NCBI GenBank assembly: GCA_037074765.1
Contig: JBAMDO010000022.1
Location: forward strand, 124,001 to 188,000
Direction: 5' to 3'
From: Mansonella perstans
Lineage: Eukaryota; Nematoda; Chromadorea; Rhabditida; Onchocercidae
Length of the DNA: 64,000 nucleotides
Under the pieces are notes generated by a model. It saw nothing but the letters and a program-made list of their open reading frames with translations. It had not been told where the DNA came from and searched no databases. Each line of letters opens with the position of its first letter. The stretch's first letter is position 1. Of this stretch, positions 29,201-42,788 are shown one piece after another. The translations under genes and the position numbers were made by a program.

Positions 29201-32200
29201 TTGATATGCCAGTTGAGAATATCCGGTGATAAGCGTAAGTGATGATGTAAAAGCTATGGTATTATTAGATACTAAGATTTCTACAAAACGATAATACAGA
29301 TGGGCAAATCTATTTGCACAAAGCTTCATTACCCTTAGCTACGGGAAGGATATTTTTCAAATATAAATAATCAGCTTCTATAAATATCTGTTCAATCTAA
29401 AATTTTAACTTCTTTCCAGACTTCCTCTAAATTCATTCAGTGAATGATTAAATAATTATGAGAATTTTTTTCAACAAGCTCAATTAATTAATTATTTAAT
29501 TAATTGACACAGCACATTTTTTCATTTTTTTTTCATTTATTTGTTAATTTCTTTTTTGTTTCTTAGTTTATTTTTATTTCCTTGTTTACACCTTATTTTC
29601 ATTTTGCTTGCTTTTTTCTTTTTGTGCAGATGTAATGGCCATATACGGTGTAGCATTCCGGTAAACAACAAACAATTTGGTAACACATGCCCGGAGACAG
29701 AAAAATATCTGGATGTGGAATACAAATGCAGTGAAAAGCTCAATATTGGTAATCAGTAAAAAATGTATTACAACTGAAAGCATTTTAAAATTCTGAAAAA
29801 GCCATTTCTTATCATAAAATTCATTTTGGGGAAAAAATGCTTGAAAGGAAGTAAAAGTTAGAATGAAAATGATCATCATATTACATGAAAAATATAGTAA
29901 ACATTTGAGTTTTACCTCTTTTTCAAAAGTGAAATTTTAGTTTTTTTCACAAAAGTTATCTTAAACTAGACAAGAATTCAAAAACCATCTATAAATATAT
30001 TTCCGTGAAAATCATGATTCTTAAAATATCAAATTAAAAAAATGAAATTTAATTTTTGAAAATTAAATAATTCAAGAAAAAACGATTATGCTTTATACTT
30101 GTATTTTAAATTTAATTTTTTATGCGTTGTCATTGTCCCTCGAGCTTTTGTTTTGCATTTTCGTAAAGTATTTTGTTATAATTTTTGCACTTAAGTAATT
30201 CTTTTTTTTTTTGTTTTTATAATTTTTGCACTTAAGTAATTCTTTTTTTTTTGTTTTTCTTAATTTAATATTTTCTGTTTAAATTTTTTTTCATTTAATT
30301 GATAAAAATTATTTTTGAAATTACAAAAAAAAGAGACGATGAAATTTTGCAGTAAAAACAACAACAAGTACAACAGCAATGACAACAACATTCAGTACAA
30401 CAACAGCTATCAGTAATCGGACATTACTGATAACTGATTTAATCAAATCATCAATAGAAACCGAATTTAAAACGTAAGTAATTGTTGGTCAAGTTTTTTT
30501 TTTCTTTTAAACTTTAAAATCAATTTAAATAGGAATTTTATATGGTTTAGAATACATGTGTTCTAAATGAATGTGTATCAAAATTAATTTAAATTTTATA
30601 GGAATGAACTGTTAGACAATGATGATGATAATGATGGTAAACAGTTTTTCTGTGATATGATAACAAAACGTGACATAGATTGGCCAAAGACAGAATTTGG
30701 CATGATAGCTCGTATGCCATGTCCAATTGGATCGACAGGTTATGCTGAATGGATATGTGGATCAGATGGAAGATGGGAATTAAGTGGACCGGATTTATCA
30801 CGTTGTGTTAGCACGTGGAGTAAAGGGTAGAAAATATTTGTCGTTTTAATTATCTCTTACGTATTTTTTATCCAATTAGATATCTAATCATCTATATGTT
30901 ATCATTATTAACAAGCTTTTATTTTTGTTTAATATTAATTAAATTTTTAAGATTACTTATTGATGCAGAAGAAGAAGTGGATGGTTCATTGGATCGATTG
31001 GAATTTCTACACGAAATTCAACAACGTACACGACGTGAACCATTACTTGGTGGTGATCTCATCACTCTTTCACGTGCACTAAAATTGCTCATTCCAACTA
31101 CAATATATGACAATGATGCGGATAAATTTGTTGAAGTACCGTGTACTCTTATCTAATTATCTAATTTCTATTTGTAATGATTAATCATAACAATATCAAT
31201 TAGTGAAATTTTTTATTAATTTAATTTTATATGAAAAATTACTAAATGGAATGTTAATTTTTATAGCTAGTTGTTGAAAGTGTTAATAATTTGGCGAAAG
31301 AATCACAAAAATCGGCATGGGACGATTTGAAAGGTGTTAAACAACGTATGACAGCTGATCAATTGATGAGTGTTGTGGATCAAGTTTCCATCACGATCAG
31401 TGCATTAATTACTCCGGATACGCCACGTATTATCATGAAACCTAATACTGGTATCATATCATATCACTTCTGCATATATTAATTTTCTCTATCAATCAAA
31501 TTTCAAATAAAAAAATTATAATTCATACTTGGCAAAATTTGACGACAATGTATGTTATGAATTTAGGCTATCGTATTTTTTATACGATTAAGCAGTTAGA
31601 GTTGCGACTATGGTAGCGTGTTGATATAATGATTAAGATGATATGATGATTTATGAGTGATGATGCTAAATTTGAAAATAAAAACGAGAATGGGTCGAAT
31701 TTCGCGATTCATGACCCACTGTAACTTTCAGATCTTGAGCTTGAAATATCAACTGTTCGGATATATGATTACGTTCCTTTTCCAAGTACAAGTTTGTATC
31801 GTACAACTGATGATACGGTTAATATTCCACGTGAAGCATTAACCCTACGCAATGATGCTATAGGTTTGTTTACAATTATCACTTTTTATTTATCGTTATC
31901 GTAATTAATTGCTAATAGAATTGCTATGATCATAATTTTTTAGCATGCAATCATTCATTTGGAATAAATTTAAATTTAGAGTTTTCATAAATTTCAGGTT
32001 TTACTGGTCCACTTTGAAAGTACAATTTATAAAAAGTACAATTTTTTTTTCAAAAAATTTTATTTACTAGTAACTTTATAGTAATAGTAGTTGAAAAATT
32101 AAATTTTACAGATGAAGCTAAAATTCTTTATGTGGCCTATTCATCAATGGGTAAACATTTGCAACCTGAAGCATATCAAGATGCAAATGGTGCTATGATA

Positions 32201-35200
32201 TCACGACAAATTGCATCAAAAATAATTTCCATCTCTGTAATAAATAGCAATAACAAGATTGAAAGCATCAATCATCTTCGTAAACCAATCATTATTACAT
32301 TTTCAACAGAGGTATGTGACATTAGCACTCAAACACTATTATAGATCATAATTTCAGATTATATCAGAGATCAGATAATTTTGTTAAAAATGACTAGCAA
32401 AATGATTGGTAATTAAAAGAATTGTTGCAGGAATTAATGAATTGATTTCCAGTAATGAGTAAGCAAAAAAGATTTCACAGTTTTTCAATTTAAATCATAA
32501 ATTAAAAGTTTGTAAAGGTGCCTAAAAATCACTAAACTCAACAACAATAGTAATTTTTAAGTTTTCATTTCATAGTAATTTCTTAAACAAATTGTCGATT
32601 CTATTCAAATTTATTTCAAGTGAAACACTTTCACTTTATTAGCACTGAAGTGTTAAATTTGTAATTTCAAAAGATTTAGCAAATTCAAACAAAGAAAAAG
32701 AAAACATTTTAATTTTAAATAATGAAAATTATAATAAGTAGACGAAAAAACTAATAACCAATCATAATTAAATAAAGGAAATTATGCTAATTAATCATAG
32801 CTAAATAACTATTATATTTAAATTAATAAATTTTTTCTTAGAATCGAGTAAATCTTTCCACGCCTCAATGTGTATGGTGGAATCGTACTGGCTTACAGTG
32901 GTCATCGTATGGTTGTATGGTCAATTTACATAATACAACGCATACCGTTTGTCACTGCAATCATTTGACATATTTTGCTGTTCTCATGGATATACATTAT
33001 CAAGAGGTATGTAAGACCATCATTTTAATCTACCAAAATATCTTTCAATGAAATCTTTGAGCTTTAAATTAAGTTTAGAAAAAAATTTGTATGGATATTA
33101 CTTAAAGATCAATTAACACGAAATATCGATTATTGACTTATCGACATTTTAATTTAAGAAATTATTAGTTTACTTTGTTCATTAGTCTTAAAAAGTTTAC
33201 ATAAACATTATATGTAAAATCAATGAGCATGAAATTATGTAAAAAAAGTTGATTATTGATTTATCAATATTTAATATGGCACACTGAATCAATCAATTAA
33301 TAGTTTACTTTATTATTTCGGGTTACAATATATTTTGATTGTAAATTTCATTTAATCAAAATAGAAGAGTGAAATTAAAATTTGAAAAGTTTTAAAAATA
33401 TTTTATAACTGACAGAGAAAGGGAATACCTATAGTAGTTTTATTTGAGTAAATGGAAGAACTCCTCTATACTAGATTATCATTTAGCAATTATTATTAAT
33501 TGAACATTTTATTTTGTTTTTTTAAAAGTGCTGTATTTAAATTTGAAATGTCAAAAATTTAATTCGATAATTTACAGCTTTCCATTGGACATAATATAGC
33601 ACTGACATTCATAACTTATGTTGGCTGTACAATATCAATAATATGTCTAGTCATATCACTATTGGCATTTCAATGTTTTGGCAGCAGTGGCGGTGATCGA
33701 ATTTTCATTCATAAAAATCTCTGTTTCACATTACTAATAGCTGAAATTGTCTTTCTTGGTGGGATTTGGCAGACAAAAAATTCCGTAAGGATTTTATGGC
33801 CTTAATAAATCATCATTTTTTCATGATCTTAACAAATCATTATTTTTTCAAGTTATTTAATATAAACCGCTGAAAATTGCATCATTTAAATTTCATATTA
33901 CTTTTATGTATTTTCATAATATCATAAAAAAACTTAAAACTGATCAACCTGATGTTTCTATCATAAAATTAAAAAATGAAATAAATATTTATTTACAAAA
34001 AAAGAAAAGAAAAGAAAAAACGAAAAATTATGAAGAAAGTTTGTGATATCATTGTCAATTATTGGCCATGTAAAATTGATATTGTTATCAATTATTGATT
34101 ATCCGGAGTTGATATTGCTATTAGTTATTGATCATAGTTTAAAATCTTAATTTAAATTATAATTTAGCATACATTTTCGCAATCAAATTTTTATCATTTA
34201 CATGAAAACTTGAAAAAACTTCTTTGTTGATTTTTCATATTTTTTATTAAATTTATGAAAAATTCTTATTTTAATTTTTCAGTTTTGCTGTGGTATCATA
34301 GCCGGTGTATTGCATTATTTCTTCCTTGCTGCTTTTTCTTGGATGTTATTGGAAGGTTTTGAGCTTTACTATATGCTTGTTGAAATATTCCAATCGAAGG
34401 ATTCCAAAAGATCATACATATTATTGTTTGGTTACGGTGTGGTACTTTTACATTTTTGAAATTTATTTTTCATAAAAAAATTCAACAATTTTTCCGGATT
34501 GATAATTTTTATATTTGAAATTTATTACTGTACTTATGTTATTATTAATTTTAAAAAAATTTTTTTTTATTGTTAACCGTATGTTATAAGTCATTATATC
34601 TCAAATAACCGAATTTGCTCAACTTGGAAATATTGAAATATTACTTTTACATTTCACTTCGTTCATCGTTTCAGGATTTCCATTATCAGTTATTATTATG
34701 TCGATGTGGTTCGATCGATATAGCTACGGTACAGAGCAATACTGTTGGCTAAGATCCGACAATTACTTTATTCTAGCATTCGTTGGACCGGTAGCTATTA
34801 TCCTACTTTGTAATACGGTTTTTCTTGTAATGACTTTATTTATTGTATGCAGTCATTCCAGTATCGGTTATACACCATGCAAACAGGATCGTGATGCATT
34901 GAAAAATGTTCGGTAAGAATTTATTTGTTTTTTAGAAACAAGCAAATTATTGTTTCATCAGTAATCATAATAAATTTCTTTTCACGCCTAGCCAATATTA
35001 TTAGCTGGGCTTATTATAGCTGGGTTACAATTTATACTTGGAAAATTTACTTATCAGTTTTTTCTTTCTAGTAAAAGTTTTTCACCGTTCGAAAGTATAC
35101 TACTATACTACTAAATGATACTGTGCTACTAAATGATACTGTACTACTAAATGATACTGTGCTACTAATGATATTTTACTACTAAATGATATTGTGCTAC

Positions 35201-38200
35201 TAAATGATCTCATTTAAAATTTCCAACTATTTTAAATATATTTTGGAATATATTCAGGAATTGGTTAAAAGGATCAATAGCATTAGTGACCATATTGGGT
35301 CTCACTTGGACTTTTGGTCTTTTATGGATTGATGAACAATCAATTTTTATGGCTTATGCATTTACTATTATGAATTCTCTTCAAGGATTATTTATATTTC
35401 TGTTTCATGTTGCTTTCAACGATCGAGTTTGTCATTTTTCTATCTTTAGTTTCATTTGTTACTGTGAACTGTTTCATTTCATCTGTTCCAATATTATTAC
35501 AGTAATCTGTTAATTTGAGAATTTTAACTCTCTTTAATTCTTTATCCAAAAATTTCTCTGGTAAATGTGTAATATTGAGATAATCAAGTTCCGATTTTGT
35601 TAAATTCAATGGCTGCTAAATGTTTTCAATTAATTAACAGTTTATGTGAAACTACTAATTAAAACAACAGCATTGCTTATAAATCTTTCTTCCAGTTGCA
35701 CAAAGATTACCTTAAATGGGTTAAACATACATCCTGGATACCGGATTGCATCCGTAATGACTCAACTCATACGTCACGTACGATGCCATATTTGCCTACA
35801 AATAGCACGAGCAAGAGCGGTCGAGCAGTCAGTTCTAGTTCATCAACAGGTTCTGAATTATTAGTAAGTGTAAAGATTTTTTTTGCTTAATTAATTTGAT
35901 CACAATGGTATAAATGTCTGTGTTAGTTATACATTCGGTCAACATTTAACAATCACGGAATAGATCCACTGTTTCACGTCTGCGATATACTTTTATGAAC
36001 GAAAACATATGGAGATATGAAAGTAACTGCAGAGAAGGCATCGCCTATAAGTATTTAAATGTCCGTCATTCAGTTAATTTTTCACAAGTCGTATGTGAAA
36101 ATTCTCACCGTTCTCGCAAAAAAAGTGTGAAGAAAATATGACGTATAATTAATTATTAGTGAATTGCTGCACAAATATTTTGCTGTAATTAATATTAATT
36201 ATATACATATTAATTAATGCTGCACAAATATTTTACTTAAATTAAAACTAATTATATTACAATTCTTTACAATCATTCTTGTGTTCTTTCCCCTTAATTC
36301 AAAAGGAAATATTTTAGTAATTAAAAAGTAATGCTATCATTTATTTGAATTGTCGTTAAATTTTTATTAGTATCATCAACATTTAGTGTGTAAAATAATT
36401 AAATGTTAATTTAATTATTATTTAAAATAAATCAGTCATTTTTTAAAATGCATAAAGATTATTCCAATAAGATAGCATGAAAAGGAAAATTTTAAACTTT
36501 TTCTAAACTTAATTTTGCACTTTTTCTTTCATAAACTATACTACTTCTTGTTAAATGATAACAATGATAACTTTCTGTCGATTAATTAGCTTTATCAATC
36601 TTTACTTTCGTTATCACAAATTTACGACTATCTGTTTTGTTATCACTGTAAAAACGAATCGTTATCATTAGTAACAGATCTTTATTTTCGTTATCACAAA
36701 TGCACAATTGTTTTGTTATCTGTTTTATGGTCAGTAACCAATCATTATCATTTTCAATTGACTTTTTTTTAAAATTTTATCATTTGAAGAGATTTTTTAA
36801 ATATTTTGAATGCAAAAGCGGTATTTATTCACCGTTATCAAAGGGATATTTTAACTGATGAATAAATCTATGTAAGGTGAGATTCCTCAATGCTCTTATC
36901 ATTCATCTATCACTTGTTATCACACATTTCTCTTCCTACCTTACAAATTATATATATTTCACTGAACATTTCAAATAATTTTTATAAGACAAGCTGAAAA
37001 AGCTTTATTGTGAAATTAAATTAAAATACAAATTTGGAATTTATTCTTTTCATATTTATAACATTTTCTTCTCTTAGTATTAATGAAATCAATTAATTAG
37101 TTTGTTTATCAGAAATATTCATTAGATCAGTTACAAATAAAATCATACATAGGCACAGACATACATATACATTATAACATTTGTATAGATGAATTGTTTT
37201 TATAACAATGTAATATTGTTTTATGATCATAATAAGGTAGATTGCGGTAATGGATTTATCTGTTACAATAGTTGCGGCACACAGGTCAAATAAAAAAAAT
37301 TAAATTAAGTTACTAATTAGCTATGCTTTTAGTAATCGCATATATTTATCTTTATTAATTATATTTCAAAAGTTTCAATTCCTTTTACCTTTGTGAAACT
37401 AATTATATTTCCAATATTTTTTTCCATCCTTTCACTAATACTTTCCATTTTTCTTTTTTTCTTTTCCACATTAATAATTTGATATTTTGCAATTTATTAG
37501 TTAAGATCATGGATTAAATAAAAAATTAAATTTTTGTTTTAAATTCGAAAAATTATAAATTTATTTTATTATACAAAAATTTTTAAACATTTAGAATTAT
37601 ACAAAGGAATATCCACCGGCACGTGAATTAATATTCTTCAATTGCGCTACCGATATTATGTTATAGATATGTAAATTTTTTTTTTTCAAATATTTTCTTG
37701 CTTTATGCTCTCTTATGGTATGGAATAATCATAAATTGATTTCTCTAGGACTATTAATTAACTTTCCATCTAGACTTCTTAATTACTAAAAGTTTTTTTT
37801 TTCTATTTAATATTTAATACGCACTAATTTAACAATGATTGATTGTATTGCGGGTGCTTTACTTATATTCGATGATCTGTCACCGTGCTGTCAAGTGAAA
37901 GACTCGTATAAAGCATTGCATCTGTCATCTATGAATATCTCTAGCAATAAATTCTCGAATGGCAATCATTTCACAGAAATGTTTTGATAGAGCTTTTGAA
38001 TTAAAATCAAACATGAATATGATGAACATTTTTGAGACCTTTGGAACTCCACGTGTAGCCCAGCTAGTATGTGCTGTGCTAGTTGTGCCGTTGGGGACAT
38101 CTTGCTGTTGCCAACAACTTCACACATAACCTTTCGGCTTGTACCTTCTGATTTTTTAACTTCTATTCTGCCTTCAATTATTTATGATTGCTATGCCTGA

Positions 38201-39910
38201 AGAATCGCAACCCCTGTATTCCAATTTCTGCCACCCGGCTAGCTTTAAAGTTAGTATTAGTGAAATTGACCGCGACTTACTACACTAAGTTATTACTCTC
38301 GAGATATTTATCGTCGTACTTCGAGTTGTACCATTTGCACTTCTATTTTCCCTTTTCTGGTTTTTTAAAAGTTATTTGAATTACAATGAAATCCTTTCAT
38401 TTGTTCATCGATAAATTACTGCAATTGAATCGCTTTTTTTTGCATGGCTGAAAATTTTAATTGATTACTTCATCAATTGCTAAAATATTTGCTTTTGCAA
38501 AAAAAAAATTTACATAAAGGTTTTTCGATTAAAATTTTTTAGTTTTATTCAAATTTTAAATTTACTAAAAAGTTTATAAAGTTTTCTGATTTAAATTCAA
38601 AATTTAAATTTATCAAATGATCAGCAGATAACGAGCAAAATAATTATCACTTTAAAATTTTTGCATGTTTACTGCTATTTTCTTTTAACTATGAAATCTT
38701 TTTTTTGTTCATTTCTGCTAAAATTGAAATTAATTTGTTTAAATCTTTTACAGTATCCTTCAATGAACGATAAATATCCTGCAATAACAACATCATCATG
38801 TATGATTGCTGCAATTGATCCACGTTACAATAATTCGGTACAAATGCTTTTATCACGACAGCGATGTAATCAAAATGGTAAATTATGTATATTAAGTCTA
38901 ATTAATAATACAGGAATGAATTTGAAATCGTTTCACAGAAATGAAGTTTTAATTGAAGAAGTTAAATTTCGCATTCTTTCTATTCAATCAATATTTCTAC
39001 AAACAAACAATATATTTATATGTACCGCGCACTAATTGAGTTTTAATTTAATTTAAAAAACGTCAATTTCAATTCATCAATTCATTAGATATATTTATGA
39101 TGTTTTTTTTTCTTTTTTTTTTTATACAACCTAAATTAATAGAATGGTGGAAATTTACACTTTTATCTGTCACATATCTTTTAGTTTTCGTTTTGTTTTT
39201 ATCTAAAGAAAAAATGAATCAAAATGAATTTCACATATATTTTAACTTGCACATGATCATTTACGTGCGTGTATATATATGATGTAAGTAAATTTACTTT
39301 ATTTACATACTCATCTTTTACCGCTACCACTACTTGCTTATTAATGAAATTCAACATAAAGCATTAAAGCATTAAATTCATTAATAAAAAATTTGGGTTG
39401 AATAAATGAGAAATATGAAATGTTTAAAGATTATTGATTAATAGAAAATATCGCGTTATTTTATGTTTATAGTTTCTTTTTTTTTTTTCAGGGTTATGCG
39501 ACTATGCAACGATTAGCTACGATGATCTCTGCAACTCGTCATCTAATTATTATCAACAATCACAGCAGCAAAATCAACACTATTTCAATTATATGCCACA
39601 TGCAACAACAACATTTGTACCCAACCATAATTTATCTCCTGTTATTAGGCCTCAATTAGGGACACATTTTAGACCACCACCTAATTTTCCACCACCACCA
39701 CCACCACCACCACCACAACTTGCTGGTGGCCATCACTCAAGTACACCATTCTCTGTTGCTTCAACCGCTCGGGTTTCGGATGATTCGGCATATAGCGACA
39801 GTTCCGCATCAACCCTACAATATCATGGTGAAGTGATAACAAATAAGTCTGCAATGTTGCTACGTATGGATTTATCCAAAAATCCGCCCGTTTTTGTTCA
39901 AGGTTTATAA
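11053..39910 (+). CDS. lat-1: latrophilin-like adhesion G-protein-coupled receptor (LAT-1 type), 17 exons, 1,053 aa
   Basis: This is a plasma-membrane adhesion GPCR. Exons by eye: 11053-11218, 21222-21408, 29630-29748, 30353-30473, 30602-30826, 30952-31135, 31267-31450, 31732-31863, 32112-32311, 32842-33006, 33578-33784, 34283-34436, 34675-34912, 35258-35426, 35696-35863, 38754-38877, 39492-39910. All phases join and the frame closes at TAA 39908. Domains in order: signal peptide (1 to about 22), Thr-rich linker, SUEL/RBL lectin (about 56-153), a second Thr-rich linker, HormR (about 213-270), GAIN (about 274-555) with GPS cleavage motif, seven membrane helices (about 567-815), and a 236-residue tail with nine consecutive prolines. 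No olfactomedin domain is present, as expected for invertebrate latrophilins. The length matches C. elegans LAT-1 (roughly 1,000 residues). LAT-1 in worms acts in oriented cell division and tissue polarity; that role here is inferred. ATG 11053 is chosen because a signal peptide follows directly. AATAAA at 40001 is the likely polyadenylation signal. Confidence 0.92.
12596..12649. repeat. near-perfect 54-bp palindrome (23-bp arms)
   Basis: Arms 12,596-12,618 and 12,627-12,649 are exact reverse complements over 23 bp (GCTTTAATTACTATTACG... against its complement). The 8-bp centre is itself palindromic (TTTAAA) with a single T/T mismatch. The flanks carry a related direct repeat, TGATTGTGATACTGTGATC near 12,540 and TGATTGCGATACTACGATC near 12,653. 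It could form a cruciform or be the remnant of a foldback or MITE-like element. Confidence 0.9.
12725..12748. repeat. 10-bp inverted repeat with a 4-base loop
   Basis: ATCTATTGCT, then AAAA, then AGCAATAGAT. It forms a perfect short hairpin about 75 bp after the 54-bp palindrome. No T-run or gene end is next to it, so it is not a terminator. Confidence 0.7.
15887..15941. repeat. TAG/GTA triplet microsatellite
   Basis: About 55 bp of TAG/GTA units with occasional AAT or TGG interruptions, inside lat-1 intron 1. Confidence 0.8.
21838..22035. repeat. imperfect tandem duplication, unit about 125 bp
   Basis: GAATTGAAATTGAAATTGG appears near 21,879 and again near 22,004. Each is preceded by a matching ATATTTCA(C/T)TT(G/A)ATAAAT stretch. 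It lies in lat-1 intron 2. Confidence 0.65.
22262..22600. repeat. tandem duplication, unit about 169 bp, each with a CT microsatellite
   Basis: Both copies run from a (CT)n tract through CTCTCTGAC, then a T/A-rich stretch with ATTTTAATATTTAATAA, then GCTAAGA(G/A)ATTTTATAAACTT. The GCTAAGA anchors are at 22,380 and 22,549. The copies differ at many bases. Confidence 0.75.
25763..25858. repeat. 49-bp tandem duplication
   Basis: GAAATGATC(A/G)GTCAACG followed by TTTTAAATTT occurs at 25,763 and 25,812, each copy continuing to (T/C)GTTAAATT. It lies in lat-1 intron 2. Confidence 0.8.
26165..26312. repeat. CA/TA dinucleotide microsatellite
   Basis: About 150 bp of ACACAT, ATATAA and ACACAC units. 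The Cys/Tyr/Val-rich frame on the minus strand is a repeat artefact. Confidence 0.85.
28796..28820. repeat. 25-base T homopolymer
   Basis: An uninterrupted T run between GCGTG and GTGCC. Its length in the assembly is likely to be uncertain. Confidence 0.9.
30177..30258. repeat. 41-bp perfect tandem duplication
   Basis: The unit TATAATTTTTGCACTTAAGT, followed by AATTC and a T-rich end, occurs twice with 41-bp spacing (TATA at 30,177 and 30,218). The copies are essentially identical, which suggests a recent event. It lies in lat-1 intron 3. Confidence 0.9.
30353..30473 (+). other. lat-1: lat-1 exon 4: Thr-rich mucin-like linker
   Basis: The exon encodes a run beginning VKTTTSTTAMTTTFSTTT, followed by a helical stretch. 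It links the lectin to HormR. The region is low-complexity and dense in likely O-glycosylation sites. Confidence 0.85.
30602..30826 (+). other. lat-1: lat-1 exon 5: hormone-receptor (HormR) domain
   Basis: Residues about 213-270 contain four cysteines (215, 238, 250, 266) and conserved tryptophans in the order C...DW...CP.G..G.A.W.C..DG.W...PDLS.C. This is the standard HormR pattern. An Asp/Asn-rich patch precedes it. It ends AAAGG|GTAG in phase 2. Confidence 0.9.
30952..33006 (+). other. lat-1: lat-1 exons 6-10: GAIN domain with GPS autoproteolysis motif
   Basis: Exons 30952-31135, 31267-31450, 31732-31863, 32112-32311 and 32842-33006 encode residues about 273-561. The GPS has the canonical cysteines and tryptophans (C516-V-W-W, C531, C543-H-C545). 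The cleavage triad is H547-L548-T549, so self-cleavage before T549 is expected. The released tethered agonist would begin TYFAVLMD. Together with the lectin, HormR and 7TM parts this places the protein firmly in the latrophilin subfamily. Confidence 0.92.
33578..35426 (+). other. lat-1: lat-1 exons 11-14: seven-transmembrane region
   Basis: Exons 33578-33784, 34283-34436, 34675-34912 and 35258-35426 encode TM1-TM7 (residues about 567-815). Family landmarks include HYFFLAAFSWMLLEG in TM3, GYGFP at the TM4 start, CWL in extracellular loop 2, FVGPVAIILLCN in TM5, LGLTWTFGLLW in TM6 and MNSLQGLFIFLFH in TM7. The exon 11/12 junction follows TM2. Exon 12 must end at GGTTACG (34436), which uses a GTGTGG donor; the alternative GTACTT donor 5 bp further would break the frame and lose GYGFP. 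Confidence 0.93.
35101..35212. repeat. 18-bp minisatellite, about six copies
   Basis: CTACTAAATGATACTGTG is repeated with an exact 18-bp period for three copies, then degenerates over three more. It lies in the intron before the last transmembrane exon. Confidence 0.88.
36599..36750. repeat. imperfect tandem duplication, unit 80 bp
   Basis: TCTTTA(C/T)TTTCGTTATCACAAAT occurs at 36,599 and 36,679. Each is followed by TGTTTTGTTATC or a similar phrase. It lies in lat-1 intron 15. Confidence 0.7.
37595..37666 (+). other. lat-1: candidate alternative terminal exon of lat-1
   Basis: After a plausible acceptor (AAACATTTAG) the frame that continues exon 15 (phase 0) reads NYTKEYPPARELIFFNCATD plus three residues, then TAG at 37664. 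Use of this exon would cut the tail from 236 to about 79 residues and remove the polyproline segment. The frame match and the protein-like composition are the only evidence. The open frame is only 24 codons, so it could be chance. Confidence 0.3.
38036..38340 (-). pseudogene. glmS: degraded bacterial-type glmS (glucosamine-6-phosphate synthase) fragment, candidate nuclear Wolbachia insertion
   Basis: The minus strand encodes pieces of the N-terminal glutaminase domain of GlmS, split over two frames. In order: SNNLV near 38,290; QKLEYRGCDSSGIAIIN (38,180-38,235), which matches the conserved LEYRGYDSxGIA motif; then, shifted, GRIEVKKSEG (about 38,150-38,180) and CEVVGNSKMS (about 38,095-38,125); then, back in the first frame, GTTSTAHTSWATRG (38,045-38,085), which matches GTTGIAHTRWATHG. 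Stops and frameshifts show it is dead. It lacks the insertion typical of animal GFAT between these motifs, so a bacterial source is favoured. It lies antisense in lat-1 intron 15, in a patch clearly richer in G and C than the intron around it. The transferred segment may extend to about 37,850. Wolbachia as donor is an inference. Confidence 0.72.
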
Positions 39911-40000
39911 AATAATTTATTAGAGTTGCTTATTGGTCATTTTTACCAACACATAATAACAACAGATTAAGCTAATTAATGTCAATTACGATAAAAAGGC

Positions 40001-42045: not shown

Positions 42046-42788
42046 TTGAATTTCTTGCCGAAATTTTAATTGTATTGCGCAGCAACCATGCCACGGCTAA
42101 CCGGAAATTAAATTGCCTGTTCTATTATGTTTAAAAACATAGGAAAATTAGAGAGGATAAAAGTTGTAACATACTATCAAATATTATCAAACTAAAAGCA
42201 GCTAATGGAAATAAAGAAGGGAAACGAGATATTGACTGAAAAGATGAGTCAATTAGCCAAAGAATTGAATGAATTACAGGAAAAAAAACTTTAGAGAAAA
42301 ATCCAGAGCGTAAATTAAAATACTTTCCAATTAATAATATTAAGAAGTTGATGTGCAAAGTTCAAAAATCTAAAATTTAGATTACTTTAAAAAAATAAAA
42401 TTGCTAAAAGAATTCATTTTCTAAAAATGAAAAATGTAAAAGAAGTCTATTAAAATATGCGATTAAAATTCTCAAAGTTATAGAAAGAAATAGAAAAAAG
42501 AAAACAAAAGAACTGCTCGCAGCAGAGAGAGGAAGAAAGAGAGATATTCACAATTAATGTATTATAGTAAGTTGCAAAATTTAAAACAAAATTTTTAAAA
42601 ATTAAAACAGCCAAAAAAAGAAAAGAATAAGGAGAACATTATTTAATAACAGCTTGTAAACAGTAATTTAAACTAATCGACAAAGAAGCAAATGACTACT
42701 TCCTTTATTTCCTTTCATTCCTTTGAATTTATTTGTCTGATACATTTCCTAAAATCAAACTTATTTATTGTGAACCGCATGATAAACT

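What the first reader, a model, noticed from the sequence alone, without database searches (positions are those of the whole stretch)
38036..38340. Dead bacterial-type glmS fragment inside an intron of lat-1
Antisense to lat-1, three ordered blocks of the GlmS glutaminase domain are readable (QKLEYRGCDSSGIAIIN, then GRIEVKKSEG and CEVVGNSKMS one frame over, then GTTSTAHTSWATRG). Frameshifts and stops separate them, and the patch is clearly richer in G and C than the intron. The spacing and the EVKKSEG-type block fit bacterial GlmS and not animal GFAT. Filarial nuclear genomes are known to carry Wolbachia fragments, so a lateral transfer from Wolbachia is the simplest reading. The true edges are probably wider (possibly about 37,850-38,345).
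Basis: partly seen in the sequence, partly recalled or inferred. Interest (0 to 1): 0.85.

Follow-up and report, generated by a model that had tools for sequence, protein, structure and literature searches.

The report
Decayed Wolbachia gene fragment in worm intron
A filarial worm carries, inside an intron of one of its receptor genes, a 278-base dead scrap of a gene from Wolbachia bacteria; it is a real trace of an old infection, but of a kind already known to be common in these worms.

Summary
Window 38,013-38,290 (minus strand) matches codons about 5-94 of Wolbachia glmS: E=1.3e-55 with a DNA profile of 35 Wolbachia glmS genes, scaled to the host genome. Gaps aside, it is 88-89% identical to wOc (supergroup F) and to an unnamed F-clade strain; the other 33 sequences reach 70-84%. 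In a tree it joins these two and wMmer, split 100/100 from all 32 others.

It is dead: seven insertions (13 bases), no deletion, and differences flat over codon positions (8/12/8), whereas the two F strains differ mostly at third positions (1/1/6). The flanks do not continue into Wolbachia. It lies in a 2.6-2.9-kb intron of a latrophilin (lat-1) gene. The presumed GFAT gene is on contig 43.

So it is a NUWT (nuclear Wolbachia transfer), ordinary for a filarial genome: 20 kb of F-clade Wolbachia finds 30 matches in this assembly, 15 in sequence of near-single copy. With my profile it would pass the 1e-30 threshold of a published screen of 22 filariae. Nothing indicates a function. Host species was not determined.

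The parts
38013..38290 (-). NUWT: decayed fragment of Wolbachia glmS (codons about 5-94, glutaminase domain), supergroup-F clade origin
   Evidence: blastn 85% including gaps to G023 and wOc; nhmmer E=1.3e-55; tree
36150..38753 (+). intron of the lat-1 orthologue that holds the fragment (left limit uncertain, could be as early as about 35,866; right limit a TTTTACAG acceptor)
   Evidence: read from the sequence; upstream 7TM exons and downstream open frame
29625..35865 (+). lat-1 orthologue exons upstream: second half of SUEL lectin, HRM, GAIN, GPS, 7tm_2 (partial exon model)
   Evidence: Pfam hits (GAIN below its cut-off in each frame); 7TM exon 80-91% identical to 12 nematode proteins, best Dirofilaria immitis latrophilin-2
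38754..39910 (+). probable 3' exons of lat-1 (cytoplasmic tail); not verified by homology
   Evidence: open frames 38,595-39,035 and 39,473-39,910; no Pfam domain above cut-off

Best explanation
The patch is a NUWT: a short piece of the glmS gene of a supergroup-F (or immediately related) Wolbachia that was inserted into an intron of the worm's lat-1 gene in the germ line, most likely by non-homologous end joining during break repair (inferred), and has since decayed without detectable selection (shown). Spliced out with the intron, it most likely does nothing for the host (inferred).
For: DNA match E=1.3e-55 at genome scale. Grouped with wOc, G023 and wMmer at 100/100 against the other 32 Wolbachia sequences. 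Flat codon-position spectrum 8/12/8 (of 88/88/89) against 1/1/6 between G023 and wOc in the same columns; at columns invariant in all 35 Wolbachia the fragment differs at 4 of 48, 8 of 56 and 0 of 10 for positions 1, 2, 3. Seven insertions, none shared with the broken glmS of G010. Neighbouring sequence unrelated to the Wolbachia neighbours. Lat-1 domains on the same contig. No intact glmS in the assembly (11 of 11 candidates scored). A partial 16S on contig 52 is 93% identical to both F-clade genomes, 90% to the Litomosoides (D) strain, 88% to J. Many other short Wolbachia-like fragments.
Against: No reads, PCR or second worm genome could be examined. Order within the F clade is unresolved (54.7/69 and 0/42), and wMmer, a fast branch of that clade, is only 77.7% identical. 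6 of 38 alignments, all to non-F strains, run past the right edge to 38,321-38,377 at low identity. 7 insertions to 0 deletions is an odd ratio for a neutral pseudogene. The 16S search scored only 5 of 271 candidates, so absence of a Wolbachia chromosome rests mainly on glmS. The end-joining route rests on general knowledge.
Confidence: 0.95

Rival explanations
1. Decayed copy of the worm's own GFAT gene.
For: GFAT and GlmS share the glutaminase domain and its motifs (recalled); GFAT1 chains do appear in the PDB listing, at E=0.38.
Against: E=6.8e-7 to bacterial GlmS; DNA identity 88-89% without gaps to two F-clade Wolbachia; the presumed host GFAT sits on contig 43.
Confidence: 0.01
2. Assembly chimera or contaminating live-Wolbachia sequence joined into the worm contig.
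For: Reads not available; published NUWT work had to remove likely live-symbiont contigs (PMC12693587, methods part 1 read).
Against: A live gene would be intact. Both sides are AT-rich intron of one gene. No intact glmS in the assembly. The 30 matches lie on 24 contigs.
Confidence: 0.02
3. The glmS copy was already a pseudogene in the Wolbachia before transfer, so part of the decay is bacterial.
For: G010, a Wolbachia with a 957,990-bp chromosome (wOo by recall of that length), has a broken glmS, and G027 and G029, whose purF-like gene (label recalled) is 95% identical to that of wOc, gave no glmS match above purF level.
Against: 0 of 7 insertions shared with the G010 pseudogene; wOc, wMmer and G023 keep open full-length genes.
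Confidence: 0.1
4. The fragment has been co-opted (lat-1 intronic regulator, or source of small RNA).
For: Transcripts of Wolbachia-like pseudogenes are reported in A. viteae and O. flexuosa, and RNA interference is discussed (PMC2882956, passages seen).
Against: No Rfam match at gathering threshold in 36,000-40,000; no constraint by codon position. Promoters, expression and small RNA were not examined.
Confidence: 0.02

Closest known systems
NUWTs of filarial nematodes (Vancaester et al. 2025, PMC12693587)
   Same: Short, decayed Wolbachia gene fragments in worm nuclear DNA; NUWTs assigned to supergroup F in nearly all genomes screened; average length 434 bp for C-origin NUWTs in Onchocerca.
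   Different: This locus is not named in that main text (glmS 0, glucosamine 0, intron 0 occurrences); supplementary tables were not open to me, so it may be listed there.
Wolbachia-like sequences of Wolbachia-free Acanthocheilonema viteae and Onchocerca flexuosa (PMC2882956)
   Same: Truncated, frameshifted Wolbachia-like fragments in filarial DNA (passages).
   Different: Other worms; about half of the expressed ones there appear to be pseudogene transcripts; glmS 0 occurrences.
Wolbachia fossils in the lungworm Dictyocaulus viviparus (PMC4046930)
   Same: Dead Wolbachia fragments recording a past infection (passages); PMC12693587 states that they are attributable to supergroup F.
   Different: A strongyloidean nematode with nearly 1 Mb of Wolbachia-like sequence (abstract in the listing).
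Wolbachia glmS of strain wOc (Osmia caerulescens, supergroup F)
   Same: 233 of 265 aligned positions identical.
   Different: Intact 608-residue reading frame.

Membership tests
NUWT (nuclear Wolbachia transfer) | Sequence nests within Wolbachia diversity | tested here: met
   IQ-TREE on the glmS codon alignment, 35 Wolbachia sequences plus the fragment; no outgroup. One search adds that the one non-Wolbachia locus found matched at 46% against 59-71%
NUWT (nuclear Wolbachia transfer) | Flanked by nematode nuclear DNA | tested here: met
   lat-1 domains upstream, acceptor and open frames downstream on the same contig; flanks do not match Wolbachia
NUWT (nuclear Wolbachia transfer) | Not a live-symbiont contig | tested here: met
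   Fragment frameshifted and inside a worm gene; no intact glmS in the assembly; only partial 16S found, with 5 of 271 candidates scored
NUWT (nuclear Wolbachia transfer) | Neutral decay | tested here: met
   8/12/8 mismatches by codon position; 7 insertions
NUWT (nuclear Wolbachia transfer) | Present in independent reads or related worms | not testable with these tools
   No reads and no other nematode genomes held
Supergroup-F Wolbachia origin | Groups with F strains to the exclusion of the other Wolbachia tested | tested here: met
   Split 100/100 (SH-aLRT/UFBoot) from 32 sequences; order inside the clade unresolved; of the clade only wOc is labelled F by a paper seen here, G023 and wMmer by their place in the tree
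Animal GFAT paralogue | Closest to animal GFAT | tested here: not met
lat-1/latrophilin host gene | SUEL lectin, HRM, GAIN, GPS and 7tm_2 in order on one strand | tested here: met
   (GAIN below its cut-off in each frame, being split over exons; SUEL mainly its second half); 7TM exon best match Dirofilaria immitis latrophilin-2, 91% over a 61-residue query

The most novel reading that the evidence does not exclude
The worm's nucleus keeps a fossil of a gene that its own symbiont lineage has since lost: glmS is broken in one Wolbachia (957,990-bp chromosome, G010) and was not found in two F-like Wolbachia assemblies (G027, G029), so NUWTs could help to date gene losses in the symbiont.
Probability: 0.15. 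Interest if true: 0.4.

Novelty: new member of a known kind. Interest (0 to 1): 0.2.

Why it matters
It is one more trace of supergroup-F Wolbachia in a filarial lineage. Sitting in an intron between fixed exons, it could serve as a clean presence/absence marker for when the insertion happened. By itself it changes no view of the symbiosis.

Tried and rejected
Searches for the region in E. coli genomes and in phages: no match. Wider edges: 37,400-38,012 against four Wolbachia genomes gave weak hits only (best E 0.006), and 300-base flanks aligned to the expected G023 neighbours no better than shuffles (59 and 142 of 200 shuffles as good or better). Pfam on the flanks gave nothing above a cut-off and Rfam nothing. 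The G+C-richer stretch 37,840-38,012 (0.347) stays unexplained. A second Wolbachia-like stretch, 42,190-42,301 (E=3.6e-11 at sensitive settings; reversed-window best 1.0e-4), matches a coiled-coil-like segment and was left undecided. Species identification through COX1 failed: 20 partial matches, 12 of them with TAA or TAG inside. An insertion-only rule for NUWTs was rejected: other fragments show insertions and deletions. Scaling up to about a thousand fragments (15 near-single-copy hits of 30 in 20 kb) is crude: the 20 kb was chosen to contain glmS, and two of the 15 are the same 35 bases on two contigs. In the purF tree one sequence (G029b, 50% to wOc) was probably in the wrong orientation and its branch is meaningless. 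The DNA look for glmS remnants in six genomes lacking a full gene showed rows inside glmS for G010 only, but its list was cut and in five of the six genomes only 40 candidates were scored, so it settles nothing. In the 16S comparison the Dirofilaria strain gave no match, which must be a miss of the tool, since the gene is universal (recalled).

Full report
Observation. DNA alignment gives the extent: 38,013-38,290 matches 265 bases of Wolbachia glmS, codons about 5-94, with 28 mismatches and 7 gaps to the best genome, G023. A DNA profile built from 35 Wolbachia glmS genes finds this one place in the window, and none in the reversed window, with E=1.3e-55 when scaled to the host genome. BLAST of the whole 64-kb window against the G023 genome gives this as the only hit at standard settings and none for the reversed window; at sensitive settings five weaker hits appear in the window and three in the reversed one.

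Origin. A scan of genome contigs (one genome for each of 84,980 species) with exact peptide patterns from the fragment matched 102 stretches, of which 5 were confirmed: four Wolbachia (wOc 71%, wMmer 64%, the Dirofilaria immitis strain 62%, the Dipetalonema caudispina strain 59%) and one Clostridia (46%). Of 41 Wolbachia genomes searched for the glmS family, 35 had a full-length gene above the cut-off. Ungapped identity of the fragment is 235/265 to G023 and 233/265 to wOc (supergroup F: PMC10195089 table), then at most 222/265; 209 for the Litomosoides strain (D), 206 for wMmer, 203 and 202 for J and C, and 185 at the bottom of the 35. The tree places the fragment with wOc, G023 and wMmer, split from the other 32 at 100/100; order inside that clade is unresolved. 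Strain labels for unnamed loci come from protein identity to named records; supergroup letters for J, C, D and E are recalled. The presumed GFAT gene of the worm lies on contig 43, and GFAT1 chains match at E=0.38, below chance gelsolin hits, against 6.8e-7 for bacterial GlmS.

State. Against G023 the differences fall 8, 12 and 8 on codon positions 1, 2 and 3 (of 88, 88 and 89), while G023 and wOc differ 1, 1 and 6 in the same columns: the fragment has drifted without visible constraint. Its branch is 0.138 substitutions per site against 0.019 and 0.018 for wOc and G023, though the live but fast wMmer has 0.27, so branch length alone proves nothing; it looks old, and I did not calibrate an age. 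All seven indels are insertions in the worm copy (13 bases). None is shared with the broken glmS of G010. Other fragments in this genome show both insertions and deletions, so the one-sidedness is a curiosity of this locus.

Setting. Upstream on the plus strand lie SUEL lectin (second half), HRM, GAIN, GPS and 7tm_2 segments in latrophilin order. A 61-residue piece of a 7TM exon is 91% identical to Dirofilaria immitis latrophilin-2 and 80-91% to the 12 nematode proteins among 27 accepted of 50 candidates. An acceptor ending at 38,753 precedes an open frame. The intron has G+C 0.231, the fragment 0.414, its bacterial homologue 0.423. The flanks do not continue into Wolbachia sequence by the tests; 6 of 38 alignments, all to non-F strains, run on past the right edge at 67-74% identity, which I take for chance AT-rich matching. 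The host is a filarial worm by its latrophilin, with a 75.7-Mb assembly in 539 contigs. The exon is not identical to that of any named species listed. Mansonella ozzardi or Cruorifilaria would fit the size (table in PMC12693587), but this was not settled.

Context. The assembly holds no intact bacterial glmS. The bacterial 16S model gave 4 partial matches, 3 above cut-off, with only 5 of 271 candidates scored. The best is 93% identical to both F-clade genomes, 90% to the Litomosoides strain and 88% to the J strain; the fifth genome tested returned nothing, presumably a miss. Twelve kilobases around glmS in wOc give 28 matches in the worm genome. Twenty kilobases of G023 give 30 on 24 contigs; 15 of these lie in sequence of copy number below 2 and most of the others in repeats that are many-fold in G023. 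The longest listed row is under 400 bases. This is the pattern described for NUWTs in 22 filarial genomes (PMC12693587: abstract, methods part 1 of 2, results, discussion part 1 of 2 and passages seen), where NUWTs assigned to F occur in nearly all species and hits were collected below 1e-30; with my own profile this fragment passes that.

Mechanism. Shown: Wolbachia origin, position inside a worm gene, decay. Inferred: insertion by end joining during break repair in the germ line, tolerated because it fell in an intron, then neutral drift. I found no sign of constraint; promoters and transcripts were not examined.

Print. Searches for glmS with Wolbachia, nuclear and filarial (all 5 papers listed, none on this by title) and for Mansonella, nuwt and intron (8 of 29 listed), besides (20 of 44 listed), showed no report of this locus by title or start of abstract; supplementary tables were not readable. 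The finding is a new member of a well-known kind, or already listed there.

Noticed in passing
window 42190-42301: A second possible Wolbachia-like stretch (72% over 118 columns to G023, E=3.6e-11 at sensitive settings) matching a coiled-coil-like segment; NUWT or purine-rich coincidence.
   Followed up: partly
window 37840-38012: Stretch beside the fragment is G+C-richer (0.347) than the rest of the intron but matches neither the Wolbachia genomes tried nor Pfam.
   Followed up: partly
L052 (G010, 957,990-bp Wolbachia chromosome): glmS is broken here; five more of the 41 Wolbachia genomes (G022, G025, G027, G028, G029) had no full-length glmS, two of them (G027, G029) 95% identical to wOc in a purF-like gene.
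   Followed up: partly
L053-L056 and other contigs of the host genome: Twenty partial COX1-like matches, 12 with TAA or TAG inside: apparently many nuclear mitochondrial fragments.
   Followed up: no
L065 (host contig 52: 220299-220802): Partial bacterial 16S rRNA in the worm genome, 93% identical to F-clade Wolbachia: a further likely NUWT.
   Followed up: partly
L077 and L078: Two Wolbachia-like pieces that lie about 2 kb and 6 kb apart in wOc sit within about 160 bases of each other, as if joined at insertion; in L078 one piece is a Wolbachia repeat, which weakens this.
   Followed up: no
L031 and L126 (G023): F-clade Wolbachia carry short intergenic repeats in dozens to over a hundred copies, and several of the worm's Wolbachia-like fragments derive from them.
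   Followed up: partly
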